From positions 1-64,000 of the forward strand of contig JAFYYG010000028.1 in assembly GCA_017557625.1 (NCBI GenBank): a stretch of DNA of 64,000 bases. Direction: 5' to 3'. The stretch comes from Muribaculaceae bacterium (lineage in GTDB: Bacteria; Bacteroidota; Bacteroidia; Bacteroidales; Muribaculaceae). The notes below the pieces were generated by a model. It did not search any database. It worked only from the letters and a program-made list of their open reading frames with translations, and had not been told where the DNA came from. Of this stretch, positions 829 to 59,717 are shown piece by piece; position 1 is the first letter of the stretch, and the number at the start of each line of letters is the position of its first letter. Made by a program: the position numbers and the translations under genes.

Positions 829-865
829 CGGTTATCGGTTATTGGTTATCGGTTATTGGTTATTG
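829..865. repeat. heptanucleotide array, YGGTTAT x5, at thioesterase start codon
   Basis: Five uninterrupted heptamers (CGGTTAT, CGGTTAT, TGGTTAT, CGGTTAT, TGGTTAT) at 829-863, then TG. On the mRNA strand these are ATAACCR units that abut the ATG of the thioesterase at 828, occupying the whole translation-initiation leader. Confidence 0.9.
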
Positions 866-873
866 TAAGAGCC

Positions 874-894
874 ACTCTCTACTCTCCACTCTCC
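874..894. repeat. heptanucleotide array, ACTCTCY x3
   Basis: Three heptamers ACTCTCT, ACTCTCC, ACTCTCC in a row. They fill the rest of the gap between the thioesterase and the secreted protein whose stop is at 901; a different word but the same 7-base period as the neighbouring array. Confidence 0.75.
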
Positions 895-900
895 ACTAAA

Positions 901-1878
901 TCACTTAATTCCACAGTGTTTCTTAAGCTCTTTAGTGGTGCTGTGTTTCTTGCCGTTGAGGTCATAGATATATTGGTTCACGTTTTTTGGCACAATTTTC
1001 TTGGCGTTGTCGAACTTTTCAGGATTGGTGATGCGCGTGAAGACTACCCGCTGGATTTTTGTCTTGTCGCAGCGGCCCATGCCGTAGCCCATCTCGGCGG
1101 GGTTCTCGCCAGGCCCGTTGCTGCTCCAGTAGGTGACGTAGCCCTCGCTGTCAATCCCCATGAAGATGACGCTGTGGCCGTGCTCCTGCAGGTCGCCTTT
1201 GTTGCCGTTGTCGCCGATTTTGGCTCCGCTGTCGTCGTCGCGGTTCCAGAAAATTTTCATGAAATCGCCCGGCTTAGCCTGTTGCCATATGGGGAGGTTG
1301 CGCCACTCATCGTCGGTGAGGTAACGCTCGTTGGGCTCTTCCTTGCAGGCATCGGTCTTCGCGCCACGGTAGGCGGTGAAATTATAGCCCGCCTTGAGCT
1401 CGTGAATAGTCACCGCTACAGCCGGTCCGTTGCCGTTCATTCGTCCCCAGAATCCCTCGCCGTCGCTCTGGTAGTAGCCTTGAGGATTCATGTTATCTAC
1501 GATACCAACAAAAGGCTTCATCGCCAGCCATGCCTCTCTCGATATTTTATGGTCTTTGTCCCACATCAGCAGGGCTTTAACAAGGGCGAGATAGGTTGCG
1601 CTGGAGCAGAATGATGGTTGTGCCTGTTGCAGGTCAATGACTGGCCAGGGGTCGGCAAGTGTCATCTGATAGGCCTGGTGCAGCCCTTTCCAAGCAGTCT
1701 TCTTGAAGGTGTCGTTAGGCTTGGCGCCGGTGTAATAACCGCCGTTTTGCGGGAACGAGTCAACTGCGGCCAGCACGCACCGCTGCCACTCCTGATTGAT
1801 TTTGTTGTCGTCGCCGGCGATAGCGATAGGCGCTAATGCTATGGATATTAAGATTGAAATTATAATTGAGCGTCTCAT
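901..1878 (-). CDS. secreted NlpC/P60- or CHAP-like cysteine hydrolase candidate
   Basis: A 325-residue exported protein. Residues 1-21 are a signal peptide (positive start, ISILISIALAPIAIA, cleavage after Ala). The mature part has a Cys in PSFCSSATYLAL (about residue 90) that starts a predicted helix, and a His in EHGHSVIFMGID (about residue 238) that opens a strand, followed by YVTYWSSNG. This Cys-helix then His-strand order is that of papain-like amidases (NlpC/P60, CHAP), which cut peptidoglycan peptides or other amides. I infer the fold from these features; no subfamily is recognised. Cysteines at DACKEE and near the C-terminus may form a disulfide. It stands alone, divergent from the cpsB-like gene. 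Confidence 0.6.
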   Translation of the reverse strand: MRRSIIISILISIALAPIAIAGDDNKINQEWQRCVLAAVDSFPQNGGYYTGAKPNDTFKKTAWKGLHQAYQMTLADPWPVIDLQQAQPSFCSSATYLALVKALLMWDKDHKISREAWLAMKPFVGIVDNMNPQGYYQSDGEGFWGRMNGNGPAVAVTIHELKAGYNFTAYRGAKTDACKEEPNERYLTDDEWRNLPIWQQAKPGDFMKIFWNRDDDSGAKIGDNGNKGDLQEHGHSVIFMGIDSEGYVTYWSSNGPGENPAEMGYGMGRCDKTKIQRVVFTRITNPEKFDNAKKIVPKNVNQYIYDLNGKKHSTTKELKKHCGIK

Positions 1879-1998
1879 AATGGTTCATTTTTATTTTGCG
1901 CCGCAAAATTACTCAAAAGTTTCTAAATGTAAGTCTTAATAATGCTTTATTTTTATAAATAATATAGTTATTATAATATTGTGTATAAGAAAAAGTAG

Positions 1999-2006
1999 TA
2001 CCTTTG
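1999..2006 (+). promoter_or_regulatory. Bacteroidota -7 element (TACCTTTG) for cpsB-like operon
   Basis: TACCTTTG matches TAnnTTTG, with a TTG at 1979-1981 as a possible -33 element. It lies 44 bases before the ATG at 2050 and would drive the phosphatase-lptF/G-ribBA run. Confidence 0.7.
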
Positions 2007-2049
2007 TGGTCGTTTTTAAGAAACCATTAATAAATTATTGAAAAAGACT

Positions 2050-2830: not shown

Positions 2831-4771
2831 ATGGCATCATTGAAGATAAAAAGACTTTACTGGTTCATGCTAAAGACATTCTTGCCTTTATTCATGATGA
2901 CCTTCTGCATCTGTCTTTTTATCGTGATGATGCAGTTCCTGTGGAAATATATCGACGAACTGGTTGGAAAAGGCTTGGGCGTGGATCTGATTGCCGAGCT
3001 GTTCTTCTATGCCGCGCTGTCGATGGTGCCACTGGCACTGCCACTGTCGATACTTTTAGCGTCGCTGATGACCTTCGGCAACTTGGGCGAGCATTTCGAG
3101 CTCACAGCGATGAAGTCGAGCGGCATCTCGCTGCTCAAGGTGATGAAGCCGCTCACCGTGTTTATCGCTATGGTGAGTGTGGGGGCGTTTTTCTTCCAGA
3201 ACGATGTGCTGCCGCAGTCACAAGTGAAGATGTGGACACTGCTGTTCTCGATGCGCCAGAAGTCGCCCACGCTCGACATCCCCGAGGGTGCCATCTACAG
3301 CCAGATTCCGGGATATAATCTTTATGTGAAGCAGAAGAATCCCGAGAATAATATGCTCTATGGCGTCCTCATTTATGACGTGTCAACCACTTCGACCTAT
3401 CCACGCATTGTGGTCGCCGACTCGGGAATGCTCAGCATGGACCCCAGCAAAACTCACCTTGTGCTCTTGCTGCATCATGGCAACTGGTATGAGGACCTGT
3501 CGCCCGATGCCACGATGAGTAACGAGCTAGGTAGTGACATGTACCGCCGTGAGGCGTTCAAGAACAAGGAAATCATCATACCTTATGATGACAACTTCAA
3601 CCGTATGAACGACGAGACCATGCGACAACAATATATAGGCAAGAACATCACCGAACTGCGGCAAACTATCGACTCGGTGAGTGCCCGTGTTGATAGTGTG
3701 GGCGATTTGGTGAGCAAAGAACTCATGTCAATGCCTGCAGTGGGAGTGCCTTCTATGCGTTTGGACCGAAATGGCGACAGTCTCGTCACAATCCCGGTGA
3801 GGCCCGTGGAGATGACGCGTGTGATAGACTTCGACTCGCTCATGGCAACACAGACATCTTATGTTCAGCAGTCAGTGACCAGTCAGGCAATCTCCAACTT
3901 GAAGATGAACAAGCAAAACTATGAGTTCAAGAATTACATGACCGAGGAAGACCGGTTCATAATAAGGCGTCACGAGATAGAGCTGCAAAAGAAGTTCACG
4001 CTCTCGCTCGCCTGCCTCATTTTCTTCTTTATAGGAGCGCCACTTGGAGCGATAATCCGAAAAGGCGGTTTGGGAACACCTATTGTTATCTCGGTGTTGC
4101 TCTTCATTGTCTATTATGTTATCGACAACATGGGCTACAAACTGGCTCGAGAAGGGCGATGGCAGGTGTGGCAGGGCATCTGGCTCAGTTCGGCGGTGCT
4201 GCTGCCGCTGGGCATATTCTTGACGCATAAGGCAGTCAACGACTCGGCAGTATTCAACCCCGATGCTTATCGCAACTTCTTCAGGCGGCTGCTGGGACTT
4301 CACCAGACGCGACACCTCGAACTCAAAGAGGTTATTATCGAGGAGGTTGAGAATAGCGTTGCCCAAAGCCGTGTGGCTGCCCTCAAGGAGCAGTGCGAGC
4401 AGTTCCTGGCGCGCTACAAGTCCCGCCAAGGCTATCTCGCTTATTTCCAGAATGGGTATGACAAACAGCAGCTTGATTCCCTCTCACAGGAGATAGAGTC
4501 GGTGGTTGACTACCTGTCCAACTCCCGTGACCAGTTGTTGCTCAACAAAGCGATGGATTTCCCCATCCTGCGCAAGATGCTCACTTATCACATCACCAAC
4601 TATAAGCATGTGGGTACTGCGCTAGCGGTATTGTTCCCGATAGGCGTGCCGCTTTATCTGGTAGGCACTTGGCATCAGACCAACCTCAAAAAAGAGGTGG
4701 CGACGGCATCAAAAGTGTGTGACGAGATAACCCAGATATTGAACTCTAATCAGGAAGACGAAAACCAATAA
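2831..4771 (+). CDS. LptF/LptG family permease
   Basis: A 646-residue inner-membrane protein of the YjgP/YjgQ family, the permease part of the ABC machine that pulls lipopolysaccharide out of the inner membrane. Transmembrane segments lie near residues 12-32, 55-80 and 100-120, then a long periplasmic part (about 125-380, beta-jellyroll in the family), then segments near 390-410, 415-435 and 450-470. Enterobacterial homologues are near 360 residues; this one has a charged C-terminal extension with another membrane segment close to the end (ALAVLFPIGVPLYLVG), as is usual in Bacteroidota. No lptB is adjacent. It is probably co-transcribed with the flanking cpsB-like and ribBA genes. Confidence 0.9.
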   Translation: MASLKIKRLYWFMLKTFLPLFMMTFCICLFIVMMQFLWKYIDELVGKGLGVDLIAELFFYAALSMVPLALPLSILLASLMTFGNLGEHFELTAMKSSGISLLKVMKPLTVFIAMVSVGAFFFQNDVLPQSQVKMWTLLFSMRQKSPTLDIPEGAIYSQIPGYNLYVKQKNPENNMLYGVLIYDVSTTSTYPRIVVADSGMLSMDPSKTHLVLLLHHGNWYEDLSPDATMSNELGSDMYRREAFKNKEIIIPYDDNFNRMNDETMRQQYIGKNITELRQTIDSVSARVDSVGDLVSKELMSMPAVGVPSMRLDRNGDSLVTIPVRPVEMTRVIDFDSLMATQTSYVQQSVTSQAISNLKMNKQNYEFKNYMTEEDRFIIRRHEIELQKKFTLSLACLIFFFIGAPLGAIIRKGGLGTPIVISVLLFIVYYVIDNMGYKLAREGRWQVWQGIWLSSAVLLPLGIFLTHKAVNDSAVFNPDAYRNFFRRLLGLHQTRHLELKEVIIEEVENSVAQSRVAALKEQCEQFLARYKSRQGYLAYFQNGYDKQQLDSLSQEIESVVDYLSNSRDQLLLNKAMDFPILRKMLTYHITNYKHVGTALAVLFPIGVPLYLVGTWHQTNLKKEVATASKVCDEITQILNSNQEDENQ

Positions 4772-4793
4772 CCGACAAACGATAAACGAAGAA
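4766..4793. repeat. degenerate heptanucleotide array before ribBA
   Basis: Four 7-base units CAATAAC, CGACAAA, CGATAAA, CGAAGAA fill the gap between the lptF/G stop codon and the ribBA ATG at 4795. The word CGATAAA recurs (reverse strand) in the array at 28362-28403. Confidence 0.7.
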
Positions 4794-11536: not shown

Positions 11537-11781
11537 AAAAGATGCTACCGTGCGAGAAGCGCAGTAGCATCCTTTTATGATAAAGCCACATCAAAGGGAT
11601 GTGATGAAACTCCGATAAATACAGGATTTGAGGGTATCCAAGTCTTTGTAATCCTCCGGTCGCGAAGACACCACGAGTGGTTGAGGCCCGCCATCGACGA
11701 GAATACTTTTCTCGGCATTTCATGAAAAATTTGAAGAGTATCCCAATCAGCTTTGATGCGGCATTTTTTCGATGATCTCTG
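11537..11781 (-). ncRNA. Bacteroidales-1 type small RNA
   Basis: A self-contained minus-strand unit of about 245 bases just downstream of rplT. It has its own promoter (-7 at 11788-11795, -33 at 11816-11819, spacing 20) and its own terminator (11541-11571). The Bacteroidales-1 RNA motif was described as a Bacteroidales-only RNA lying almost always downstream of the L20 gene, with a Bacteroidota promoter at one end and a terminator at the other, and as resembling 6S RNA; location, ends and size all fit. The sequence is GC-richer than the flanking spacer. Assignment rests on position and architecture, as I cannot run a covariance model. Confidence 0.8.
11541..11571 (-). terminator. terminator of the Bacteroidales-1 type RNA
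   Basis: GATGCTAC (11541-11548) pairs with GTAGCATC (11564-11571); on the minus strand the hairpin is followed by TTTTGGCTTTT. Confidence 0.8.
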
Positions 11782-14044: not shown

Positions 14045-15979
14045 TTATAAGTTTATCATTTCGTTCACTTCTTGAGTGATTTCGGCTGCAAAGGTAGTAA
14101 TTTTTTCTGAACCTTTATCAATTCCGCCCTGTTTTCTTACCGAAACTTCTTCATTTGCAGCTTCTTTTTCACCAACAATGAGCAAATATGGTATTCTCTT
14201 GAGTTCATTGTCGCGAATTTTCTTGCCTATTTTCTCATTTCGGTCGTCGATGATGGTGCGCACATCGGCATCGTTGAGAACTTGAGCCACATGCTTAGCA
14301 TACTCGTTGTACTTCTCGCTGATGGGAAGAACTACCACCTGTTCAGGAGCGAGCCACAATGGCAGCTTGCCTGCGGTGTGCTCAAGCAGCACAGCCACAA
14401 AACGCTCGAGCGAGCCAAATGGCGCGCGGTGAATCATGATGGGACGGTGCTTGGCGTTGTCGCTGCCAGTGTATTCCAGCTCGAAGCGCTCGGGCAAGTT
14501 GTAGTCAACCTGGATTGTTCCCAATTGCCAGCGACGGCCCAGCGCGTCTTTCACCATGAAGTCGAGCTTGGGGCCATAGAATGCAGCCTCGCCTTCTACC
14601 TGCTTTGCGGGAAGTCCTTTCTCCTCGCAAGCCTCTACAATGGCGCGCTCGGCACGCTCCCAGTTCTCATCGGTGCCCACATATTTCTCTTTGTTGTTGG
14701 GGTCGCGAAGCGAGATTTGTGCCTCATACTCAAAGCCAAACACTCCGAGGATGTAGTTGATGATGTCCATCACGTTCAGGAATTCCTGCTTGAGCTGCTC
14801 GGGGGTGCAGAACAGGTGGGCATCGTCTTGGGTGAACGAGCGCACGCGGGTCAAGCCGTGAAGTTCGCCGCTCTGCTCATAGCGATACACAGTACCGAAC
14901 TCAGCGAAACGCAGAGGCAGGTCTTTGTAGCTGCGAGGCGCTGTGCGGTAAATCTCGCAGTGGTGAGGGCAGTTCATGGGTTTGAGCATGTATTCCTCGC
15001 CCTCCTCAGGTGTGTGGATGGGCTGGAACGAGTCCTTGCCATATTTTGCGTAATGACCGCTGGTCACATACAGGTTCTTATTGCCGATGTGAGGGGTGAT
15101 AACTTGCTCGTAGCCATATTTCTTCTGAATCTTGGCGAGGTAGTCCTGCAGACGGTTGCGCAGGGCTGCGCCCTTAGGCAGCCACAGTGGCAAGCCTTGG
15201 CCCACGCGCTGCGAGAAGGCGAAGAGCTCCATCTCCTTGCCAATCTTGCGGTGGTCACGCTTCTTGGCCTCCTCGAGAAGCACCAGATACTCGTCGAGCA
15301 TCGACTTCTTGGGGAACGAGATGCCATACACGCGCAGCATCTGCTTGCGGGTCTCGTCGCCACGCCAATAGGCACCGGCCAGTGACAGCACCTTCACTGC
15401 TTTGATGGGGGCGGTGTTGGGGATATGAGGACCGCGGCACAGGTCGGTGAACGCACCCTGGGTGTAGGTGCTGATAGTGCCGTCTTGCAGGTCATTGATA
15501 AGCTCTATTTTATATGTTTGGCCAGTGTCGCCAAAGAACTTCAGGGCATCGGCCTTTGTGATGTCGGCACGTTTCACCTCTTCTTTCTTAGCCACTAACT
15601 CTGCCATTTTCTTCTCGATTTTCGGGAAATCGGCTTGAGTAATTTCATTGTCGCCTGGGTCGATGTCGTAGTAGAAGCCGTTCTCGATGGCTGGACCGAT
15701 ACCGAACTGAACACCAGGATAAAGTTCTTGCAAAGCCTCGGCAAGTAAATGTGCCGAAGTGTGCCAGAAGGCGTGTTTGCCCTCGGGGTCGTCCCACTTG
15801 AAGAGCTTAATCTCGCCGTCGCTACAAATTGGTCGAGATATGTCCCATTCTACATCGTTGATGCTGGCGGCCAGCACGTTGCGTGCCAAACCCGAGCTGA
15901 TGCTCTCAGCAACTTGCAGTGGAGTTACCCCACTCTCATACTCTCTTACACTTCCGTCAGGAAATTTAATGTTGATCAT
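14045..15979 (-). CDS. thrS: threonyl-tRNA synthetase
   Basis: A 644-residue class II synthetase that charges tRNA-Thr. In order: TGS domain (about 1-62, [20 protein letters not shown]), the editing SAD domain with HxxxH in [13 protein letters not shown] (about 72-84) and a later Cys/His pair in [11 protein letters not shown], the catalytic core with MNCPHHC (motif 2 region, zinc Cys) and motif 3 APFGSLERF, and the anticodon-binding domain from about 540 (EQVVVLPIS). All zinc and editing residues are present. First gene of the translation operon, with a consensus promoter 64 bases upstream. No T-box is visible. Confidence 0.98.
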
Positions 15980-16042
15980 AAATTGTTGTAAATGTTTGTG
16001 TTAATACTTGTGCCATACAAAAGCACGTTCTAAATCAAGCTG

Positions 16043-16050
16043 CAAAGATA
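16043..16050 (-). promoter_or_regulatory. promoter of the thrS translation operon
   Basis: -7 TATCTTTG (plus-strand CAAAGATA) with -33 TTG (plus-strand CAAT at 16070) 19 bases upstream. Confidence 0.8.
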
Positions 16051-16062
16051 CAAAAAAGTTTT

Positions 16063-16090
16063 CAGTTATCAATTGTCAGTCATCAGTTTT
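16063..16090. repeat. heptanucleotide array over the thrS -33 region
   Basis: Four units CAGTTAT, CAATTGT, CAGTCAT, CAGTTTT. The second unit supplies the -33 element of the thrS promoter. Confidence 0.7.
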
Positions 16091-16316
16091 TTCAAAAAAC
16101 AATGCAAAATGAGCAAAAAATCAGCAAAATGAGCTGTAAAATGCTACCGCTGCGGAGCGGATTTTTGTCATACAATTACAAACAATTAATAACAAAACAT
16201 CTAAGGAATGCTGTTTTTGTCATTTCTTGTTGTTTTTGTTTGACTGTTCTTTGCTCTAAATCACATTTTTCCCTATTCATCACTGCTTTTGACTTGCAGG
16301 TTTTATAAAAAGGCGG

Positions 16317-16344: not shown

Positions 16345-16722
16345 ATGGCAGAACATAATTTGCTTGGCAAGGCTGGTGAGCAGGAGGCGGCGGAGTTTCT
16401 TGTGCGGCAGGGGTTTATCATCCGTGAGACGAACTGGAGACTGAACAAACTGGAGATAGACATCATCGCCCAGGAACCTGGCATGGTTCTGCACATCGTG
16501 GAGGTGAAGACTCGCGGCAGCGATGAGTACTTCGACCCTATGCGCGCCATCACAGAATCCAAAAAGCGTCACATGATAGCCTCTGCCAATGCCTATCTCA
16601 ACTATTATCAGCTCCAATGCGAGGTGCAGTATGACGTGATAATCCTCGTTGGCGAGCCTGGATTTTTCAGGTTGGAGTACTATCCCGACTTGTTTTTGCC
16701 GAAACTGAAAACGTATAGGTAG
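16345..16722 (+). CDS. yraN: YraN family (UPF0102) endonuclease-fold protein
   Basis: A 125-residue cytosolic protein of the YraN/UPF0102 family. The family has a restriction-endonuclease-like fold related to Holliday junction resolvases; its exact role is not settled. Visible signature: LGKAGEQEAAEFLVRQGF, then NWRLNKLEIDIIAQE and VLHIVEVKTRGS, giving the E-(x)-D-(x)-E-V-K metal-site pattern, all intact. Length is normal. It has its own promoter. Its stop codon (16720-16722) overlaps the first unit of a heptad array that runs on into a palindromic element. Confidence 0.9.
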   Translation: MAEHNLLGKAGEQEAAEFLVRQGFIIRETNWRLNKLEIDIIAQEPGMVLHIVEVKTRGSDEYFDPMRAITESKKRHMIASANAYLNYYQLQCEVQYDVIILVGEPGFFRLEYYPDLFLPKLKTYR

Positions 16723-16775
16723 GTTATAAGTTTTAAGTGTAAAGTGACAAGTAGGGACGAGGCGTGCCTTGTCCG
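16721..16775. repeat. heptanucleotide array running in phase into palindromic element (copy 1)
   Basis: Units AGGTTAT, AAGTTTT, AAGTGTA, AAGTGAC, AAGTAGG at 16721-16755. The palindrome GTAGGGACGAGGC GT GCCTTGTCCG at 16751-16775 starts inside the last unit, keeping the 7-base phase. Confidence 0.85.
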
Positions 16776-22023: not shown

Positions 22024-22025
22024 AT

Positions 22026-22102
22026 AAGTGTTGAGTTTTGTGTGTCAAGTGTTAAGTAGGGACGAGGCCTGCCTCGTCCGTTATGTGTTATGTGTTAAGT
22101 GT
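22026..22102. repeat. heptanucleotide array with palindromic element (copy 3) in phase
   Basis: Eleven consecutive 7-base units: AAGTGTT, GAGTTTT, GTGTGTC, AAGTGTT, AAGTAGG, GACGAGG, CCTGCCT, CGTCCGT, TATGTGT, TATGTGT, TAAGTGT. Units five to eight form the 25-base palindrome (22056-22080), so palindrome and array share one frame. Confidence 0.88.
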
Positions 22103-22121
22103 CATAGATGTCGTTTAGTTG

Positions 22122-22156
22122 CTTAACACTTAAAACTTTACGCTTAACACTTAAGC
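22122..22156. repeat. heptanucleotide array at the adk stop codon
   Basis: Five units CTTAACA, CTTAAAA, CTTTACG, CTTAACA, CTTAAGC, the reverse complement of the AAGTGTT-type word on the other side of the hemW-adk gap. The last unit overlaps the adk stop codon (22151-22153). Confidence 0.8.
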
Positions 22157-23335: not shown

Positions 23336-23343
23336 CAAAATTA
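23336..23343 (-). promoter_or_regulatory. promoter of hpt-adk
   Basis: -7 TAATTTTG (plus-strand CAAAATTA), -33 TTTG (plus-strand CAAA at 23363-23366), spacing 19. Confidence 0.85.
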
Positions 23344-23363
23344 GTGCAAATTGATAGAAATAC

Positions 23364-23391
23364 AAAATGAAAAGCGAAGTTTTTCATTTTT
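23364..23391. promoter_or_regulatory. palindrome over the hpt -33 region
   Basis: AAAATGAAAA, GCGAAG, TTTTTCATTTTT: near-perfect inverted repeat whose left arm includes the -33 bases. A copy with the same loop sits at the same place in the yitT promoter (53950-53979). It may be an operator or a remnant terminator. Confidence 0.6.
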
Positions 23392-23850: not shown

Positions 23851-23885
23851 AGTGTTTAGTGTTTAGAGTTTAGTGTTTAGAGGGG
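23851..23885. repeat. heptanucleotide array, AGTGTTT type, before PG0541-like gene
   Basis: Five units AGTGTTT, AGTGTTT, AGAGTTT, AGTGTTT, AGAGGGG. It lies 9 bases upstream of the ATG at 23841. Confidence 0.85.
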
Positions 23886-23907
23886 ATGGTTGAGAGATTG
23901 AAAACAA

Positions 23908-23935
23908 AAAACTCAAAACTGATAACTAAAAATAT
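23908..23935. repeat. heptanucleotide array after the RND permease gene
   Basis: Four units AAAACTC, AAAACTG, ATAACTA, AAAATAT, ending two bases before the permease stop codon at 23938. Confidence 0.65.
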
Positions 23936-28361: not shown

Positions 28362-28403
28362 TTTATCGTTGTTCGTTTATTGTTGTTCGTTTATCGTTGT
28401 TCG
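28362..28403. repeat. heptanucleotide array overlapping the tolC-like 3' end
   Basis: Six units TTTATCG, TTGTTCG, TTTATTG, TTGTTCG, TTTATCG, TTGTTCG, from one base after the adaptor ATG to inside the tolC-like gene, where the last units encode the end of the protein and its stop codon (28391-28393). Confidence 0.9.
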
Positions 28404-29737
28404 TTGGAGACTCCATATTTTGCCAAAGGCGCATTGCCGAGCATCAGTTCAAGGTTGCTCTGTGAAACGAGCAAGTTATAGATTGCTTGGTAGTAGGAGA
28501 GACGTGCGCCAAGTAATGCGTTTTGAGTGTCTTGAATTTGCAGGAAGGTGCCTACTCCGAGTTTGAAACTCTCTTGCATTATGTTGTCGCTTTTCTCGGC
28601 GAGTGCCACACTGGCTGCGTTACTCTCGATTTGCTTTAGGTTGCTCTTGATGTTGTTGAGCTGAGTCTCAACTTGCGAGTTGAGAGTGCGAGTTAGGTTC
28701 TCGCGCTGCCATTTCATTTCATTGACAGCGATTTCGGCCTCTTTCTGCTTGAAATATCGCTGGCCACCTGAGAACAGATTCCACGACAGTGATAATGCTG
28801 CTTGTGAGTAGGGACTCCAGTTGAAGTTCTTGAAAGGACTACCGTTGCTCATGGAGTTCCAAGAATAGTTGATGCTGCCATATAGGTTTGGAAACCACGA
28901 CATCTTCTGTGTCTCGAGGGCTTTCTTCATATAGTCGGTCTGGAGGTCAAGTAGCCTAAGGCTGGGGTTGTTGACAAGCGAAGTGTCAACGGTCATGGTG
29001 TAGTCATACATCATTGCCTTGTAGCTGTCGAGTGTCTCGCTTGGTTCAATGTCAACGTTGGCATCCATGCCCATGAGCACCTTGAGCTGCAGTTTAAGAG
29101 CGTCGATAGAGTTCTGTGCGTCAAGAATTGACGGCTCGAGTGTAGTGGCTGCCACGCGCGCACGGGTCATGTCATACTCACTGGCCACTCCAATCTCAAA
29201 CTGCTTCTTGAATATTTCGGCGGTGAGCAGCGCCGTCTCGTGGTTGGCTTCTATCACCCGCTTGCTGTCGCGTGCCAGCAGCAGGGCATAATAGGCGTTT
29301 TTCACTTGGTTTACCAGCGAGAGGCGTGATGAGCGTGCATTTTCAATGTTCTGGAGAATTTGGTTGTCGCTCAATTTTATAGATTTCCACAGTGCTGGAA
29401 CGATTATTGGCAGTGTACCGCTAAACCCCACGCTGTGAGAATTGTCGGTGCCTACCTTGATTCTCTGTTCTCCCATCACAAATGTTTGCTTTGCAAGGGT
29501 TCGAGAGTAGCTGGCAGAGAAATCAACGTTAGGGAACAATTGCCCCAAGGTTTCTTTCTTGGAGTAATCGACACGTTGAATCTCCATGTCGGCGACAATG
29601 ATTGATGGATTGTCGCTCAGAGCGATGCGGATGCAGTCGTCGAGAGTCACGTTAAGTGTCTCGGCTCCTGATGCTAATGATGTTGTTGTCAACGCAACAG
29701 CTATCAGCGCGATTTTAGATAATTTTTTCAGATGCAT
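28391..29737 (-). CDS. TolC-family outer-membrane efflux channel
   Basis: A 448-residue outer-membrane factor. Signal peptide at about 1-25 (ending SLASGAET). Two OEP repeats are visible, each with long helices and short strands: about 30-225 (DDCIRIALSDNPSIIVADME) and about 240-435 (NPSLRLLDLQTDYMKKALET, LSWNLFSGGQRYFKQKEAEI). The C-terminus ends NEQR, encoded inside a heptad array, so its last residues may differ among strains. It follows tetR by 12 bases and precedes the adaptor gene. Confidence 0.95.
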   Translation of the reverse strand: MHLKKLSKIALIAVALTTTSLASGAETLNVTLDDCIRIALSDNPSIIVADMEIQRVDYSKKETLGQLFPNVDFSASYSRTLAKQTFVMGEQRIKVGTDNSHSVGFSGTLPIIVPALWKSIKLSDNQILQNIENARSSRLSLVNQVKNAYYALLLARDSKRVIEANHETALLTAEIFKKQFEIGVASEYDMTRARVAATTLEPSILDAQNSIDALKLQLKVLMGMDANVDIEPSETLDSYKAMMYDYTMTVDTSLVNNPSLRLLDLQTDYMKKALETQKMSWFPNLYGSINYSWNSMSNGSPFKNFNWSPYSQAALSLSWNLFSGGQRYFKQKEAEIAVNEMKWQRENLTRTLNSQVETQLNNIKSNLKQIESNAASVALAEKSDNIMQESFKLGVGTFLQIQDTQNALLGARLSYYQAIYNLLVSQSNLELMLGNAPLAKYGVSNEQR

Positions 29738-31445: not shown

Positions 31446-31451
31446 AGTGCT

Positions 31452-31493
31452 TAATTTAATGCATAATGCACAATGCATAATTCACAATTTATT
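31452..31493. repeat. heptanucleotide array, ATGCAYA type
   Basis: Six units TAATTTA, ATGCATA, ATGCACA, ATGCATA, ATTCACA, ATTTATT, six bases upstream of the small frame's ATG. The same words recur at 59697-59717. Confidence 0.85.
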
Positions 31494-32450: not shown

Positions 32451-32499
32451 AGTTGTCAGTTTTGAGTTTTGAGTTGTCAGTTATCAGTTGTTGGTTTTG
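32451..32499. repeat. heptanucleotide array, AGTTNTY type, at the nadE start codon
   Basis: Seven units AGTTGTC, AGTTTTG, AGTTTTG, AGTTGTC, AGTTATC, AGTTGTT, GGTTTTG, starting at the base next to the ATG. Confidence 0.88.
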
Positions 32500-32597
32500 A
32501 GCTTTTCAGTTTGCAAATTTCGTCAAAAATCTTGATGTATGCAAGTATTTCATAATATTGAGAAAGAAAAATATTTTGTTGTTTTATAATTATTGCT

Positions 32598-33014: not shown

Positions 33015-33769
33015 CACGACTTATTTCTTGGAACGTGAACGGCCTGCGTGCCGTGGTGGGCAAAGACTTCGCCGAAACATTCAAGGCGCTTAACGCTGAT
33101 TTCTTCTGTCTGCAAGAGACCAAAATGCAGGCAGGACAGCTCGACCTAGAGTTTGAAGGCTACCGCAGCTACTGGAACTATGCCGATAAAAAAGGCTATT
33201 CAGGTACTGCAATATACACTCGTCAAGAGCCGCTGAATGTGACTTTAGGCATTGGCGTTGACGAACATGACCATGAGGGTAGGGTGATAACTCTTGAAAT
33301 GGGGAACTTTTACCTGGTAAACGTGTATGTGCCTAATAGTCAGGATGGCTTGAAGCGCCTTGACTACCGCATGAAATGGGAAGATGACTTCAGGGCTTAT
33401 CTGCTCAAACTCAATGAGACTAAACCTGTGATTGTGTGTGGCGACCTTAATGTGGCGCATCAGGAGATTGACCTCAAGAACCCAAAGACCAACCGCAAGA
33501 ATGCTGGCTTCACCGACGAGGAGCGTGAGAAGATGACAACGTTGCTCAATGCCGGCTTTACCGACAGTTGGCGACATTTCAACCCCGATGTGGAGGGCGT
33601 GTATTCGTGGTGGAGTTACCGCTTCAGGGCACGCGAGAAGAATGCCGGCTGGCGCATCGACTACTTCCTGGTTAGCAACGATGCTCGCGACAAGATGCTC
33701 AACGCTAAAATACACACCGAGATTTACGGTAGTGATCACTGCCCAGTGGAGCTTGAAATAAATCTATAA
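33011..33769 (+). CDS. xth: exodeoxyribonuclease III
   Basis: A 252-residue AP endonuclease/3'-5' exonuclease of base-excision repair, endonuclease/exonuclease/phosphatase fold. Motifs in order: SWNVNGLRAV (metal Asn), LQETKMQ (Glu), VNVYVPNSQDG, ICGDLNVAH (Asp-x-Asn), and GSDHCPVEL (Asp-His). All catalytic residues are present and the length is typical. Coupled to the upstream membrane protein gene by a 4-base overlap. The stop codon overlaps the first unit of a heptad array. Confidence 0.95.
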   Translation: MTRLISWNVNGLRAVVGKDFAETFKALNADFFCLQETKMQAGQLDLEFEGYRSYWNYADKKGYSGTAIYTRQEPLNVTLGIGVDEHDHEGRVITLEMGNFYLVNVYVPNSQDGLKRLDYRMKWEDDFRAYLLKLNETKPVIVCGDLNVAHQEIDLKNPKTNRKNAGFTDEEREKMTTLLNAGFTDSWRHFNPDVEGVYSWWSYRFRAREKNAGWRIDYFLVSNDARDKMLNAKIHTEIYGSDHCPVELEINL

Positions 33770-33816
33770 GTGTAAAATGTTAAGTTTAAAGTAGGGACGA
33801 GACTGTCTCGTCCGTT
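33768..33816. repeat. heptanucleotide array with palindromic element (copy 4) in phase
   Basis: Units AAGTGTA, AAATGTT, AAGTTTA, AAGTAGG, GACGAGA, CTGTCTC, GTCCGTT. The palindrome (33791-33814, 24 bases) has stem GGACGAGAC/GTCTCGTCC, a paired change from GAGGC/GCCTC in other copies. The first unit overlaps the xth stop codon. Confidence 0.85.
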
Positions 33817-36101: not shown

Positions 36102-36150
36102 ACGGACGAGGTAGGCCTCGTCCCTACTTAACACTTAAAACTTAGCACTT
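36102..36150. repeat. heptanucleotide array with palindromic element (copy 5), before dnaE
   Basis: Units on the plus strand: ACGGACG, AGGTAGG, CCTCGTC, CCTACTT, AACACTT, AAAACTT, AGCACTT. The palindrome is 36103-36127. The next seven bases ATATATG contain the dnaE ATG, so the array fills its leader. Confidence 0.88.
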
Positions 36151-36154
36151 ATAT

Positions 36155-39100: not shown

Positions 39101-39805
39101 CTCTTTGGTGACATGATGGACTCCTTTACCTCCAAGCCCACCATCCCTAAAGCTGAAGCATGGCCCAATATGGAACGCCTGTCGCGTGAGCGCGAACTGG
39201 TGGGCATCTATCTATCGGCTCATCCTCTTGATCCATTCTTCATGGAGATGAAGTTTGGCTGTACGTCAACTATCAAGAACTTCGTTGAGACGGGCGAGAG
39301 CCATTTAGGTCAAGAATATGTCCTTGGCGGCGTGGTAACAGACTACACAGAGCGTCCCTCTAAGCGCGGCAACAACTTTGGCATTCTTAAGATTGAGGAC
39401 AAGACAGGCAGCACCGAGTTCATGCTCTTTGACAAGGTATTTGCCGAATATCGAAACTACTGCATTCCTGGCACGGCTATTGCAGTGAAATGCAAGTATG
39501 AGATGAACACTTATAGTAATAAGGTGGCTCTCAGAGTTAGCAGCATAGCCTTCCTTAAGGATCTTAAGGGTAAAATGGTTCAGAGTATCGTCATCAGTCT
39601 CAATGAGAAACAGTTGCAGTTTAGCGGCATAATGCTTGAGCAGTTAAAAGCAAAATCTGACACTAAATGCGACCTGGTATTCAAAATACACGACTTGGAG
39701 ACCAACCGATATGTTGAGATGAAGTCGAAGTTCAAAATTCCACTTACGCGGGAGTTTATTGAGCAACTTGATGAATTGGGAATAAAATATAAAGTTGAAG
39801 TATAG
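36155..39805 (+). CDS. dnaE: DNA polymerase III subunit alpha
   Basis: A 1216-residue replicative polymerase. N-terminal PHP domain (FIHLHVHSQYSLLDGQ, DHGNMFG; about 1-290), polymerase core with the catalytic aspartates in LPDIDVDFDDDGR (about 446-458) and the third in the VIEETGLIKMDFLGL region, GRGSAAGSAVAYCLG, finger and beta-clamp-binding parts, then OB fold (about 1040-1130). DnaE1 type: no N-terminal proofreading exonuclease. Length and motifs are normal. The ATG lies directly after a heptad array, and the stop codon overlaps another. Confidence 0.97.
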   Translation: MFPFIHLHVHSQYSLLDGQAPVKGIVDKAIDNGMRGVALTDHGNMFGIKELHDYVNKKNSDVNGTIKELKKKLEEEQAKETPDADVIANLKIDLNEQESKLFKPIFGCEAYVANEDMHSHTDKRDIGRHLILLAKNLQGYHNLIKIVSKAWTDGFYSHPRTDHNELAAHHEGVICCSACLGGEVPQLIMNGDINGAREAIKWYKGVFGDDYYLELQRHKATVPNANHETFQKQQEVNAVLLQLSKELGVKVICTNDSHFLNEDDADAHERLVMLSTGRRMSDEHSLLYTKQEWFKTQEEMNELFADVPEALQNTMEILDKVEIYSINHAPILPDFPLPDGFDNEDDYLRYLVYEGAKERWPDMDDEHRERIDFELETIKKMGFPGYFLIVQDYIRVAPSLGCTVGPGRGSAAGSAVAYCLGITKIDPIKYDLLFERFLNPDRISLPDIDVDFDDDGRAAVLKYVTEKYGAEKVAHIITYGTMAAKMAIKDVARVHDLPIPESNRLANFIPSRPNDMPEDEKGKNYKITIKNCLKCFPEFRQELENPNPIVGDTIRYAEKLEGNVRGTGVHACGVIIGRDDITDWVPVSTAVDKEDKEGARIVVTQYEGSVIEETGLIKMDFLGLKTLSIIKDALANIKQTHGIDIDIEKIPIDDPKTYQLYCEGKTTGTFQFESAGMQKYLMELQPSTFEDLIAMNALYRPGPMAYIPQFIARKHGRDPITYDFPEMEKYLKDTYGITVYQEQVMLLSRLLAGFSRGESDVLRKAMGKKQKDKLDKLKPKFIKGGEERGHDTKTLEKIWSDWEAFASYAFNKSHATCYSWIAYQTAYLKANYPSEYMAAVLSRSGDVEKMTKFMDECKAIGVKVMGPDINESFKSFSANKEGIIRFGLNGIKGFGSNSVDAIIDEREKNGPFKDIYDVVERVNLSACNRRAIESLALSGAFDSFGVQREAFFEKNTKGEDFSEVLVRYGQQYQQDKSSQVNSLFGDMMDSFTSKPTIPKAEAWPNMERLSRERELVGIYLSAHPLDPFFMEMKFGCTSTIKNFVETGESHLGQEYVLGGVVTDYTERPSKRGNNFGILKIEDKTGSTEFMLFDKVFAEYRNYCIPGTAIAVKCKYEMNTYSNKVALRVSSIAFLKDLKGKMVQSIVISLNEKQLQFSGIMLEQLKAKSDTKCDLVFKIHDLETNRYVEMKSKFKIPLTREFIEQLDELGIKYKVEV

Positions 39806-46084: not shown

Positions 46085-46438
46085 ATGAGCTCACAAGATT
46101 GGAAAGCGATGCTCGGGGCGGCGTTTAATGTTGACCCCGATGCTGTGGAAAATGAGGGAGTGGCGCAAGAGGCTGCTCCGGTATCGGCTGCTGAGCAGCA
46201 GGGAAAGACGATGATAGACATCATCCTTGACAAGAAAGGCCGCAACGGCAAGAAGGCTACGATTGTTGCTAATCTTACCCTCGACGACGAGAACCTCAAG
46301 GCGCTTGCCGCAGAGCTCAAGCGTCACTGTGGTGTTGGCGGCTCTGCCCGAGGTGGTGAGATACTGATTCAGGGCGACAAACGCGATGCGGTCCTAAACT
46401 ATCTTAAAAGCCAGGGATTTAAGGCAAGGATTATTTAG
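46085..46438 (+). CDS. SUI1/eIF1-family translation factor (YciH-like)
   Basis: A 117-residue cytosolic protein. Residues about 42-117 form a SUI1 domain (GKKATIVANLTLDDENLKAL, then LKRHCGVGGSARGGEILIQG with the basic-loop pattern, and VLNYLKSQGFKARII). Bacterial homologues such as YciH can influence start-site selection on the 30S subunit; the role here is inference. The acidic N-terminal 40 residues (VDPDAVENEGVAQEA) are not in the domain. The stop codon overlaps a heptad array. Confidence 0.9.
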   Translation: MSSQDWKAMLGAAFNVDPDAVENEGVAQEAAPVSAAEQQGKTMIDIILDKKGRNGKKATIVANLTLDDENLKALAAELKRHCGVGGSARGGEILIQGDKRDAVLNYLKSQGFKARII

Positions 46439-46478
46439 TGTAGAGTGGAGAGTATAGAGTGTAGAGTGGAGAGATGTT
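46437..46478. repeat. heptanucleotide array, AGTRKAG type, at the SUI1 stop codon
   Basis: Units AGTGTAG, AGTGGAG, AGTATAG, AGTGTAG, AGTGGAG, AGATGTT; the first overlaps the TAG stop. A GCAGCGG, TTTTG, CCGCTGC hairpin follows at 46485-46503. Confidence 0.88.
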
Positions 46479-46536
46479 CTCCGTGCAGCGGTTTTGCCGC
46501 TGCCACATAAACCGATAACTAATAGCTATTTAATAA

Positions 46537-56602: not shown

Positions 56603-56652
56603 ATTATTTTTTATCAAACAATTACAAACAATTTAAATATTTTTCAGTAAAT

Positions 56653-56687
56653 GTGCAACGTGAAACGTGAAACACGAAATGAGCGAA
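56653..56687. repeat. heptanucleotide array, GTGAAAC type
   Basis: Units GTGCAAC, GTGAAAC, GTGAAAC, ACGAAAT, GAGCGAA between the tRNA promoter and the nhaC stop codon (56709). Confidence 0.75.
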
Positions 56688-58193: not shown

Positions 58194-58222
58194 GCTTAAT
58201 GAGTATTTGAAAATTTAGAGTG

Positions 58223-58230
58223 CAAAAATA
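58223..58230 (-). promoter_or_regulatory. -7 element (TATTTTTG) for nhaC
   Basis: Plus-strand CAAAAATA, 30 bases upstream of the ATG at 58193. Confidence 0.7.
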
Positions 58231-58388
58231 CAAAAAAGATTTTAGATATTAGTTTTTACTAGTGCATTTTTAGGTTTATAGCCAAGTATACTTGGCGACC
58301 TGCTGACTGATTTTGCTGATACTGATTGTGCTTGCGGTTATATTGACTTATATCTTTTCATTTATTTTGTGGTTTGTGATTTTTTTTG

Positions 58389-58396
58389 TAAATTTG
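58389..58396 (+). promoter_or_regulatory. -7 element (TAAATTTG) for rarA
   Basis: TAAATTTG 24 bases before the ATG at 58421. Confidence 0.7.
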
Positions 58397-58420
58397 TGGG
58401 TTGATAAATGATTGACAATT

Positions 58421-59698
58421 ATGTACGAACCATTGGCAGAGCGCATGAGACCCAAGTCGCTCGATGATTATATAGGGCAAAAGCACCTCGTGGGTGAGGG
58501 CGCTGTGATACGTCGCATGATAGAGAGTGGCAATATCTCGTCGTTTATCCTATGGGGGCCGCCGGGAGTGGGCAAGACCACGTTGGCGCGCATCATCGCC
58601 GAGCAGACTAAGGTTCCGTTTTACACCCTCAGTGCAGTGACAAGCGGCGTTAAAGAGGTGCGTGAGGTGCTTGACCGATGCCGTGCAGACGCTGGCAGCA
58701 TATTCACGAAAGGTCGCCCGGTGCTTTTCATCGACGAGATACACCGCTTCAACAAGTCGCAGCAGGACTCTCTGCTCGGTGCCGTGGAGAAAGGCACGGT
58801 GACACTTATAGGCGCCACTACCGAGAACCCGTCGTTTGAGGTGATTCGTCCGTTGCTCTCCCGCGCTCAGGTTTATGTCTTGGAGCCGCTCACTAATGAC
58901 GACTTGTTGCAGCTTCTCGACCGTGCCATCAAGACCGATAAAATTTTTAAAGACCGTGAGGTTAAGGTGGAGGAGACCGAGGCGATGCTTCGTTACAGCG
59001 GCGGGGATGCCCGCAAACTGCTCAATATCCTGGACCTGATTTACCAGTCTCTTGATGCCCATGAGGCGTTTGTAATTAACGACAAAATAGTAACCGACCG
59101 TCTGCAGCAGAACCCGCTCGCCTTTGACAAAAACGGTGAGATGCATTATGACATTATCTCTGCGTTTATCAAGTCTATACGCGGCAGCGATCCTGATGCC
59201 GCCGTTTATTGGCTCGCGCGACTTATCGCCGGTGGCGAGGACCCCAAATTTATCGCTCGTCGCCTGTGCATTCTTGCTGCCGAGGACATAGGCCTTGCCA
59301 ATCCTAACGCCCTGCTTCTCGCCAATGCCACCTTCGACGTTATCAACAAGATAGGTTGGCCAGAGGGGCGCATTCCGCTGAGCGAGTGTGCCATATATCT
59401 AGCTACCAGCGAGAAAAGCAACAGCGCTTATCTTGCCATTGACGATGCTCTACATCTCGTGGAGCAGACGGGCAATCTGCCCGTGCCATTGCACTTGCGT
59501 AACGCTCCCACAAAACTCATGAAAGAGCTGGGTTATGGTGCCGATTACAAATATGCCCACGACTTCCCTGGGCATTTTGTAAATCAAGATTATCTGCCCA
59601 AGGAATTAAAAGACACAAAAATATGGAATCCCCAACCGCACACTGCGGCCGAGGCAAAACTCAAAGAGCGGCAAGACAAGCGCTGGGGGGATGATTAA
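58421..59698 (+). CDS. rarA: replication-associated recombination protein A (RarA/MgsA)
   Basis: A 425-residue AAA+ ATPase working at stalled forks. Walker A LWGPPGVGKTTLARIIAE, Walker B FIDEIHRFNKSQQD, sensor ATTENPSFEV, Arg finger region RPLLSRAQVYVLEPL, then the tetramerisation part with YLARLIAGGEDPKFIARRL. All motifs are intact. I start at MYEPLAERMRP (58421); the in-frame TTG at 58412 is not needed. The stop codon is followed by a short heptad array. Confidence 0.95.
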   Translation: MYEPLAERMRPKSLDDYIGQKHLVGEGAVIRRMIESGNISSFILWGPPGVGKTTLARIIAEQTKVPFYTLSAVTSGVKEVREVLDRCRADAGSIFTKGRPVLFIDEIHRFNKSQQDSLLGAVEKGTVTLIGATTENPSFEVIRPLLSRAQVYVLEPLTNDDLLQLLDRAIKTDKIFKDREVKVEETEAMLRYSGGDARKLLNILDLIYQSLDAHEAFVINDKIVTDRLQQNPLAFDKNGEMHYDIISAFIKSIRGSDPDAAVYWLARLIAGGEDPKFIARRLCILAAEDIGLANPNALLLANATFDVINKIGWPEGRIPLSECAIYLATSEKSNSAYLAIDDALHLVEQTGNLPVPLHLRNAPTKLMKELGYGADYKYAHDFPGHFVNQDYLPKELKDTKIWNPQPHTAAEAKLKERQDKRWGDD

Positions 59699-59717
59699 TG
59701 CACAATTCACAATGCTA
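59697..59717. repeat. short heptanucleotide array at the rarA stop codon
   Basis: AATGCAC, AATTCAC, AATGCTA; shares words with the array at 31452-31493. The first unit overlaps the TAA. Confidence 0.7.

What the first reader, a model, noticed from the sequence alone, without database searches (positions are those of the whole stretch)
829..59717. Junctions between genes carry arrays with a strict seven-base period, each with its own word
At about 18 sites (829, 874, 4766, 16063, 16721, 22026, 22122, 23851, 23908, 28362, 31452, 32451, 33768, 36102, 39804, 46437, 56653, 59697) the spacer reads as three to eleven units of exactly 7 bases. The word differs by site (for example YGGTTAT, AGTGTTT, AGTTNTY, AGTRKAG, ATGCAYA), yet the period does not. 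Many begin or end at a start or stop codon. Independent expansion of different words with one unit length suggests a mechanism that measures seven bases. Heptanucleotide STRR repeats are known in cyanobacteria; I do not know of a description for Bacteroidales.
Basis: seen in the sequence. Interest (0 to 1): 0.85.

Follow-up and report, generated by a model that had tools for sequence, protein, structure and literature searches.

The report
Seven-base repeat arrays at gene edges
This rumen bacterium has short arrays of seven-base repeats in about one gap in nine between its genes, made from a handful of shared words that almost always read outward from the gene they touch; such repeats are known in other bacteria, but the rule holding across many words, and a promoter type built of five seven-base steps, look new.

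Summary
The seven-base period is real and genome-wide. In 1.76 Mb (58%) of the genome, 179 noncoding arrays have period 7, against 1.2 in shuffled sequence and at most 19 for any other period tested that is not a multiple of seven. "Each with its own word" is wrong: about eight degenerate word families recur across the genome and in sister species. Within a family the same positions vary at unrelated loci; in two families neighbouring units are identical less often than chance, in three others more often. Arrays abut gene edges more than expected and read outward from the gene in 84 of 85 classified cases (30 of 32 in relatives), at starts and stops alike. They come and go between sister species, adding a median of 58 bp. 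One subset is a stereotyped promoter: five in-phase ACTNNNN steps between an A-tract and the -7 box. Heptamer repeats, the outward rule and TAACTGA repeats in Bacteroidetes are published for single words (PMC4692102, PMC4679880). I file this as a new variant of a known kind; what causes the polarity and the unit length is open.

The parts
827..865 (+). array GGTTATY, about 5 units, reading outward from the start codon of the thioesterase-like gene 97-828(-)
   Evidence: score 24.5; the two sister species with this junction have an 18-bp gap here
874..897 (-). array AGTGGAG, about 3.5 units, the opposite arm in the same gap, with a different word
   Evidence: score 14.5
4763..4789 (-). short CGTTTAT-type array between lptF/G-like and ribBA-like genes
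   Evidence: score 10, P about 0.003 per 90 nt; genes
16042..16093 (-). heptad promoter: -7 box (T at 16050), steps at offsets 9-37 (ACT in four of the five), A-tract; upstream of gene 14045-15979(-)
   Evidence: module list; coordinates derived from its 'to start 71'
16720..16752 (+). array AAGTNNN directly after the stop of ORF 16345-16722(+)
   Evidence: score 11; no array scored in 4 of 4 sister species
16754..16774 (.). imperfect hairpin GGACGAGGC..GCCTTGTCC following the array
   Evidence: read from the sequence; same family as the perfect hairpins
22025..22057 (+). AAGTGTT-type array at the start side of gene 20830-22023(-)
   Evidence: TRF score 31; 3 of 4 sister species have an AAGTGTT array at this junction
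22060..22079 (.). hairpin GGACGAGGC-ct-GCCTCGTCC, preceded by GTAG
22080..22102 (+). array GTTATGT
   Evidence: TRF; scored
22122..22154 (-). array AAGTGTT on the minus strand, right arm, at the stop of the adenylate kinase gene 22151-22732(-)
   Evidence: score 11; gene
23851..23880 (+). array AGTGTTT, left arm, from the start side of the P-II-like gene 23548-23841(-)
   Evidence: score 18; G087 has CGTTTAT/CGTTTTT here; G001, G066, G088 have no array
23901..23932 (-). array with ACT words, right arm, at the stop of the AcrB-like gene 23938-27096(-)
   Evidence: score 10
28362..28406 (+). CGTTTAT/CGTTGTT array (14-base repeat) spanning the stop of gene 28391-29737(-)
   Evidence: TRF score 81; period-7 score 9; shorter gap without array in 4 sister species
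31457..31489 (+). array AATGCAY in the gap 31286-31602
   Evidence: score 16
32451..32512 (+). array AGTTNTY starting at the start codon of the NAD synthase gene 31602-32450(-)
   Evidence: score 19.5; TRF
33768..33792 (+). degenerate AAGTGTA array after the stop of gene 33011-33769(+)
   Evidence: score 5.5, not significant alone
33795..33813 (.). hairpin GGACGAGACtGTCTCGTCC preceded by GTAG
36104..36123 (.). hairpin GGACGAGG..CCTCGTCC
36126..36151 (-). array ACTTAAC directly upstream of dnaE 36155-39805(+)
   Evidence: score 11.5; same word upstream of dnaE in several named relatives, different word in L062, none in L034, L036, L039, L043, L073
39801..39845 (+). GGTTATT-type 21-base duplication, part of an insert of about 87 bp at the dnaE stop with TATA on both sides
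   Evidence: TRF score 83; period-7 score only 7; insert absent in G001, G066, G087, G088
46437..46473 (+). array AGTGKAG that includes the stop codon of the SUI1-like gene 46085-46438(+)
   Evidence: score 17.5; AAGTGTT in G087, another word in G001
46485..46503 (.). hairpin GCAGCGGttttgCCGCTGC
56650..56679 (-). array GTTTCAC (GTGAAAC on +)
   Evidence: score 13
59697..59715 (+). AATKCAC, 2.7 units, including the stop of the mgsA-like gene 58412-59698(+)
   Evidence: score 7.5, weak alone; G066 has a longer array of the same word at the same stop

Best explanation
These are dispersed heptamer repeats of the kind known from Xanthomonas, Nostoc and Beggiatoaceae, here in a many-word form. Shown: a genome-wide period of seven; about eight degenerate families; gain and loss at conserved gene junctions with added length; an almost absolute outward strand rule at gene edges; preference of some words for starts and others for stops; and a subset that forms a five-step promoter upstream of the -7 box. 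Inferred: new arrays arise as insertions of family sequence into gaps at gene edges, then change length in steps of 7 and 14. Selection on the flanking gene, or a functional role there, keeps mostly arrays that read outward. At starts this leaves A/C-rich leaders or promoters; at stops it leaves 3' trailers, some followed by a hairpin. What fixes the unit at seven is not known; the published guess is DNA-polymerase slippage with a seven-base footprint.
For: Period 7 above all other basic periods. Recurrent families, with the same positions variable at unrelated loci. Presence/absence at orthologous junctions in 137 comparisons: 104 neither, 15 window only, 10 relative only, 8 both. Added length at 12 of 13 variable junctions, median +58.5 bp. 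Outward 84 of 85 own and 30 of 32 in relatives. Word by boundary preference, chi-square P = 2.7e-6. Promoter phasing: ACT at offsets 9, 16, 23, 30, 37 in 25, 23, 22, 18, 26 of 446 boxes, 0 to 11 at the other offsets from 3 to 65; same five peaks in relatives.
Against: Selection has no obvious reason to fix orientation at stop codons: of 50 stop-adjacent arrays 49 read outward, and of these 49, in 25 neither orientation supplies stops in all three frames, in 11 both do, in 8 only the orientation found, in 5 only the reverse. Arrays are not plain draws from a family pool: two units of one array are identical more often than pool draws in AGTTNTN (0.147 against 0.077), AGTTNAN (0.144 against 0.080), AGTGNAG and ATCGG, which suggests local growth as well. 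Shared unit order between arrays does not exceed within-array shuffles in most families, so copying of long stretches is weakly supported. The insertion step was not observed within one species. Trailer function is a guess.
Confidence: 0.45

Rival explanations
1. Local slippage: each array grew in place from a chance or functional heptamer (for example the stop codon plus four bases, or the AACTGAAAACT part of a promoter), the polymerase favouring seven-base loops.
For: Heptanucleotides were the most abundant long-repeat class in most genomes (Mrazek 2007 as cited in PMC4679880). Sister species differ in unit number upstream of dnaE. Units of one array are more alike than pool draws in AGTTNTN, AGTTNAN, AGTGNAG and ATCGG, and neighbours are identical more often in AGTGNAG, ATCGG and weakly AGTTNTN. 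The promoter core is itself heptad-phased and could be a seed.
Against: Neighbouring units are identical less often than chance in AATGCAY (0.128 against 0.254 +- 0.035) and AGTGTTA (0.045 against 0.223 +- 0.053); GGTTATN points the same way without significance (0.130 against 0.268 +- 0.085). The same positions vary at unrelated loci. The same words are reused at unrelated junctions and in sister species. Arrays could, however, be filtered against perfect repeats.
Confidence: 0.25
2. Strand-directed addition: an enzyme adds heptads onto free 3' ends at gene-edge breaks on both sides, which are then joined. This gives outward words on both flanks with unrelated words.
For: Outward rule at both starts and stops. 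20 of 23 array pairs in one gap are convergent; the left word and the reverse complement of the right word match within one base in only 3 of 23. At the window gap 828-901, ancestral gene-start sequence seems replaced, not just split.
Against: No RVT_1 gene was found in 12 of 21 array-rich genomes and there is no correlation (rho -0.08). Ku in 0 of 23 genomes. Many words would need many templates. AGT arrays more than 25 bp from any edge show no significant polarity (17 of 25). In relatives only 3 of 10 pairs in one gap are scored convergent, 5 include an unclassified word and 2 are parallel.
Confidence: 0.1
3. Palindromic mobile elements (MITE or REP-like) whose ends are heptad arrays around a hairpin, moved by a Y1 (RAYT/IS200-like) transposase.
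For: Recurrent hairpin GTAG-GGACGAGGC..GCCTCGTCC flanked by AAGTGTT words. Convergent arms. TATA on both sides of the dnaE insert. Y1_Tnp matches in 21 of 21 array-rich genomes at E <= 0.001 (20 of 21 over the curated cut-off).
Against: The two arms usually carry different words. Only 6 perfect G+C-rich hairpins lie within 40 bp of the 46 own arrays scored in 450 kb (two more window copies flank arrays below that score threshold). The Y1 count does not clearly track arrays (rho 0.34, P = 0.052; G031 has 8 Y1 matches and no AGT array hits).
Confidence: 0.1
4. Arrays are binding platforms for a protein with a seven-base footprint (RNA- or DNA-binding); fixed positions are contacts and variable positions are spacers.
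For: Fixed and variable positions per family; five-step promoter of constant length; MacGregor 2015 proposes S1, Csp or Csr proteins for TAACTGA (abstract).
Against: About eight word families next to unrelated genes; turnover between species; array lengths from about 4 units (10th percentile) to about 30.
Confidence: 0.1

Closest known systems
GGGNATC heptamer repeats of Xanthomonas and Nostoc (Rehm 2015, PMC4692102; abstract, sections 13, 14, 16 and passages read)
   Same: Seven-base units, over-represented in noncoding DNA, almost exclusively nearer the 5' neighbouring ORF irrespective of gene orientation (the outward rule), convergent pairs with one array on each strand (70 cases in Xcc, 75 in Xac); the genome here also has ATCGGGG arrays, outward 4 of 4 when within 10 bp of a stop.
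   Different: One G-rich word there, about eight families here, most not G-rich. Convergent arms here usually carry different words, so G-quadruplex or stem-loop formation cannot be the general reason. 83% of Xcc repeats are kept in Xac; here 8 of 33 comparisons with any array had it in both species, at a divergence that was not matched to theirs.
TAACTGA direct repeats (MacGregor 2015, PMC4679880; abstract, sections 7, 10, 15 and passages read)
   Same: The same word (a rotation of ACTGATA, this genome's AGTTATC family), mostly just upstream of starts; one set in reverse orientation after a stop in F. litoralis; empty sites in relatives; already noted in five Bacteroidetes.
   Different: Related heptamers were rare as direct repeats in the BOGUAY genome, but dominate here. 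No promoter phasing was reported in the parts read. The Microcystis sample there shows no clean orientation rule, which speaks against the rule being universal.
STRR repeats of cyanobacteria (recalled; the term appears in listings)
   Same: Heptanucleotide arrays dispersed between genes.
   Different: Different words (recalled, not compared by a tool).
BrickBuilt minisatellite MITE of Porphyromonas gingivalis (PMC4596501, abstract and outline only)
   Same: Tandem repeats within intergenic elements in a Bacteroidales, with promoter activity.
   Different: 23-base unit, single element with small inverted-repeat ends.
REP/BIME elements with GTAG-hairpin and RAYT transposases (recalled)
   Same: GTAG followed by a hairpin in one subfamily here.
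   Different: Heptad arms, usually different words per arm, no clear link to Y1 gene number.

Membership tests
heptameric simple sequence repeats (Mrazek/Rehm class) | tandem units of seven bases in excess over all other long periods | tested here: met
   179 noncoding runs against 1.2 shuffled; other periods from 3 to 24 that are not multiples of seven at most 19
heptameric simple sequence repeats (Mrazek/Rehm class) | concentrated in intergenic DNA | tested here: met
   179 noncoding and 32 coding runs, although 11% of bases are noncoding
heptameric simple sequence repeats (Mrazek/Rehm class) | near-identical neighbouring units, as expected from slippage | tested here: inconclusive
   more identical than pool draws in AGTGNAG, ATCGG and weakly AGTTNTN; less in AATGCAY and AGTGTTA; no clear difference in AGTTNAN and GGTTATN
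heptameric simple sequence repeats (Mrazek/Rehm class) | outward strand rule (Rehm section 13) | tested here: met
   84 of 85 own, 6 unclassified set aside; 30 of 32 in relatives
TAACTGA repeats (MacGregor) | unit TAACTGA or a rotation, upstream of start codons in forward orientation | tested here: met
   AGTTNTN family: 20 start-side, 4 stop-side arrays within 12 bp; AGT words at starts outward 28 of 28. Only this family qualifies, not the whole set
MITE / palindromic mobile element | terminal inverted repeats of one sequence | tested here: not met
   left word and reverse complement of right word within one base in 3 of 23 pairs
MITE / palindromic mobile element | target-site duplication at empty/filled sites | tested here: inconclusive
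   TATA both sides at dnaE; not clear by eye at the other junctions printed there
REP with RAYT transposase | cognate Y1 transposase whose presence tracks the repeats | tested here: inconclusive
   rho 0.34, P = 0.052 in 34 genomes
telomerase-like addition | a reverse transcriptase in array-bearing genomes | tested here: not met
   PF00078 in only 9 of 21 array-rich genomes; these are mostly incomplete genomes and only one RT family was searched
G-quadruplex repeats | G-tracts in the repeat unit | tested here: not met
   met only by ATCGGGG and a few AGAGGGG-type arrays; the main words (AGTTNTN, AGTTNAN, AGTGTTA, AATGCAY) have no G-run

The most novel reading that the evidence does not exclude
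The outward rule, holding at both gene ends for unrelated degenerate words, is the footprint of a strand-directed process that writes seven-base units onto 3' ends at gene edges (telomerase-like in effect, though not with a known reverse transcriptase or Ku). In this lineage it has also given rise to a promoter class that is read in five seven-base steps.
Probability: 0.07. Interest if true: 0.95.

Novelty: new variant of a known kind. Interest (0 to 1): 0.6.

Why it matters
Heptamer repeats have been reported one word and one taxon at a time (papers cited here), with explanations tied to the word: G-quadruplex, a translational regulator, slippage. Here many words in one genome obey the same placement and strand rule, which weakens word-specific explanations and makes the question of what measures seven bases testable within one genus whose species gain and lose arrays at the same junctions. 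The five-step promoter gives a functional handle that can be measured in a reporter assay.

Tried and rejected
Rejected: AGT as a universal core of heptamer repeats. 107 of 175 own arrays hold AGT/ACT (43.5 expected for random words; the trinucleotide tally printed shows this doubled, 214). In many other Bacteroidota genomes, however, the reversed control (TGA at the same spacing) is as common or commoner, as it is in G016 and G027 of the same genus, so the core is lineage-specific.

Rejected: gene-edge base composition as the sole cause of polarity. AATGCAY is A/C-rich yet reads outward within 10 bp of stops in 19 of 19. Rejected: stop-codon supply as the general cause at stops. Rejected: Ku-dependent end joining (0 of 23). 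Rejected: an RVT_1 reverse transcriptase as a requirement. Rejected: terminal inverted repeats of one element. Rejected: rearrangement breakpoints as the usual cause; orthologous junctions were found for 23 of 36 possible array comparisons and 114 of 152 others (counted; contig breaks blur this).

Inconclusive: shared unit order between arrays. Above within-array shuffles for AGTTNTN runs of three (13 against 6.5, 1 of 200) and four (2 against 0.4, 9 of 200), AGTGNTN runs of four (4 against 0.9, 3 of 200) and AGTGNAG runs of four (1 against 0.0, 7 of 200); not for AATGCAY, AGTTNAN or the other run lengths. Outward polarity fades for AGT arrays more than 25 bp from any edge (17 of 25). In eight short stretches from other families of the class, one gap (L234) breaks the rule by eye. 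Rfam found only a 6S-like RNA in the window.

Dropped before counts: arrays without genes on both sides (4 of 179); arrays with unclassified words (6 abutting ones, 14 of 69 arrays). Thresholds differ between scans (score 11; 12; 13). Genes are ORFs of at least 80 aa chosen greedily, not a trained gene finder; for the window junctions I used an edited list. The strand orientation of the non-AGT families was learned from the same own-genome data; the relatives are the independent test.

One search shows this is not so for four families, so I lowered the best explanation from 0.5 to 0.45 and raised local slippage from 0.2 to 0.25.
Full report
What was given. The window is contig 13 of a 3.05 Mb, 76-contig genome. 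Its dnaE gene (36155-39805) encodes a protein 93-96% identical to that of four metagenome genomes labelled uncultured Bacteroidales, Prevotellaceae and Muribaculaceae, two of them titled as rumen samples (L029, L030, L031, L037).

The period is real. In the first 450 kb, a scan that scores matches at every lag from 4 to 15 found 49 noncoding runs at 7, 41 at 14 and 0 to 3 at every other lag, with 0.15 expected at 7 in dinucleotide-shuffled gaps. In 1.763 Mb of the genome it found 179 at 7 (7,578 bases of 196,306 noncoding), 135 at 14, 76 at 21, 19 each at 8 and 10, and 1.2 expected at 7. In 1.33 Mb from relatives, 64 at 7 against at most 8 at any other lag from 4 to 20 that is not a multiple of seven. 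Of the 18 sites, 10 are strong, 5 moderate and 3 weak on their own. Of 1,333 gaps between called genes, 152 hold an array. Median length is 5 units, maximum about 30.

The words are not private to each site. Listing 37 array-bearing gaps outside the window shows the same words again and again. 175 arrays with genes on both sides fall mainly into AGTTNTN, AGTTNAN, AGTGNAG, AGTGTTA, AATGCAY, ATCGGGG, GGTTATN and CGTTNWT. Sister species use the same families. A more distant set of relatives uses other words, such as TTTAGGC around a shared GGCATCCGC core.

The units behave oddly for tandem repeats. In each family certain positions are nearly fixed and others vary, and it is the same positions at unrelated loci: position 7 is polymorphic in 22 of 22 AATGCAY arrays and 5 of 5 GGTTATN arrays, position 5 in 55 of 68 AGTT arrays. 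Neighbours are identical less often than draws from the family pool in AATGCAY (0.128 against 0.254) and AGTGTTA (0.045 against 0.223), and, without significance, in GGTTATN (0.130 against 0.268). In AGTGNAG (0.189 against 0.088), ATCGG (0.333 against 0.184) and weakly AGTTNTN (0.118 against 0.077) they are identical more often. Any two units of one array are more alike than pool draws in AGTTNTN, AGTTNAN, AGTGNAG and ATCGG. AATGCAY alternates with a 14-base period: at position 7 the mismatch is 0.71 at lag 1 and 0.33 at lag 2, and the summed difference was reached in 0 of 500 unit shuffles. Simple slippage from a founder does not fit the first group, while some local growth is likely in the second. 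Filtering against perfect repeats could contribute and was not tested.

The outward rule. Where an array lies within 10 bp of a gene edge and more than 30 bp from the other edge, its word strand reads away from the gene in 84 of 85 classified cases: AGT words 27 of 28 at stops and 28 of 28 at starts; the other families 31 of 31 within 10 bp. The orientation of the non-AGT families was learned from these data. With it, relatives give 30 of 32; one of the two exceptions is, on reading, two adjoining words that the scan merged. AGT arrays far from any edge show no significant bias (17 of 25). Arrays abut edges more than uniform placement predicts: 84 of 129 against 46.7, and 22 of 53 against 5.7 in gaps with at least 100 spare bases. 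Two arrays in one gap are convergent in 20 of 23 cases and usually differ in word; in relatives 3 of 10 pairs are scored convergent, 5 include an unclassified word and 2 are parallel. Some words prefer starts (AGTTNTN 20 to 4) and others stops (AATGCAY 19 to 2, AGTGNAG 11 to 2; chi-square P = 2.7e-6). At starts, avoidance of false start codons and of G could explain this (inference). At stops I found no coding reason.

Gain and loss. At orthologous junctions in four sister species (G001, G066, G087, G088), 137 comparisons gave 104 without arrays, 15 with an array only in the window, 10 only in the relative and 8 in both. At 23841 the window has AGTGTTT, G087 has CGTTTAT/CGTTTTT, and the other three have none. 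At 13 junctions that vary between species, species with the array have longer gaps in 12 (median +58.5 bp, P = 0.0012). At the dnaE stop the window has an insert of about 87 bp with TATA on both sides, absent in all four relatives. Upstream of dnaE the ACTTAAC word persists in several relatives with different unit numbers, is replaced by AACTAAC/AACTCTT in one (L062) and is missing in others.

A promoter built of five steps. Scanning TANNTTTG boxes (the -7 element of Bacteroidetes promoters, recalled) within 200 bases upstream of called genes and with at least 45 bases of noncoding DNA before them, ACT occurs at offsets 9, 16, 23, 30 and 37 in 25, 23, 22, 18 and 26 of 446 boxes, in 0 to 11 at the other offsets from 3 to 65, and in only 3 and 6 at offsets 44 and 51, where a sixth and seventh step would lie. 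19 boxes have three or more in-phase ACT in this one phase, 0 to 2 in the other six. Relatives repeat the pattern: 14, 16, 9, 12 and 22 of 304 boxes; 8 boxes in this phase against 0 to 3 in the others. An A-tract precedes the first step. I recognised panC, recR, gltX, prfA and ybeY among the downstream genes by reading the translations (recalled, no family search). A stricter pattern occurs in 22 of 37 genomes of the genus and 0 of 24 from other families of the order. In two relatives (L244, L247) a gene that I read as pheS, homologous to one behind an own module, keeps the A-tract and core while the middle steps differ. Site 16063 of the finding is such a promoter (16042-16093, four of five steps with ACT). 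The constant number of steps points to function more than to free expansion.

Mechanism candidates. RVT_1 genes occur in 15 of 34 genomes and do not track the arrays (rho -0.08). Y1 transposases match in 32 of 34 (31 over the cut-off) with a weak, non-significant trend (rho 0.34, P = 0.052). Ku is absent from 23 of 23. I therefore prefer insertion of family sequence plus selection for orientation, with part of the start-side arrays recruited into promoters (0.45). Local slippage (0.25), strand-directed addition, a REP/MITE-like element and a protein-binding platform (0.1 each) remain possible.

What is known. Rehm 2015 (PMC4692102) reports for GGGNATC in Xanthomonas and Nostoc that repeats lie nearer the 5' neighbouring ORF whatever its orientation, and that convergent pairs are common in Xanthomonas; it cites polymerase footprint and slippage as a hypothesis for the unit length. 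MacGregor 2015 (PMC4679880) reports TAACTGA arrays upstream of starts in Beggiatoaceae, and arrays in cyanobacteria and in five Bacteroidetes, some with empty sites in relatives. The listings (capped: for example 40 of 91 papers, 15 of 49, 15 of 64) showed no account of several heptad families in one Bacteroidales genome, or of heptad-phased promoters; the library lacks most subscription papers, so this is weak evidence of novelty. AGT-type arrays match in 180 of 247 Bacteroidota genomes sampled (some with one match only), so the phenomenon is far wider than five species.

Verdict. The interpretation of independent expansion is not supported for most of it. The class is known; the many-word outward rule, the unit statistics and the five-step promoter make this a new variant that is worth following.

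Noticed in passing
window 11578-11763 (-): 6S-like RNA (Rfam RF01693, Bacteroidales-1), 112.9 bits.
   Followed up: no
window 23336-23396: A conserved element of about 60 bp (GCAAAATTAGTGCAAATTGATAGAAATACAAAATGAAAA...) with many copies at 84-93% identity in the four distinct sister genomes searched (capped list), also seen upstream of a gene in L016 13266; not a heptad array.
   Followed up: no
window 22060-22079, 33795-33813, 36104-36123, 16754-16774; L020 12843-12862: Dispersed hairpin GTAG-GGACRAGGC..GCCTYGTCC, a REP-like repeat next to AAGTGTT words; a second hairpin family TGTTGCGATGNCATCGCAACA recurs in the same genome (the 16754 copy read).
   Followed up: partly
L059 439, 6307, 9798; L050; L055: In a more distant clade the arrays use TTTAGGC and AGTTTAG words, several around a shared core GGCATCCGC; one word is one base from the plant telomere repeat (recalled; resemblance only).
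   Followed up: no
G164, G199, G282: Other Bacteroidota use AGTNNNC units in which neighbouring units rarely repeat (AGTAGAC, AGTTTGC, AGTGGTC, AGTTGTC in one run of G164).
   Followed up: partly
own genome, 1.76 Mb: Secondary excess of period-8 and period-10 noncoding arrays (19 each against 2.6 and 0.4 expected); a period-8 TCTTGTCC array lies in the G066 gap orthologous to window 22023-22151.
   Followed up: no
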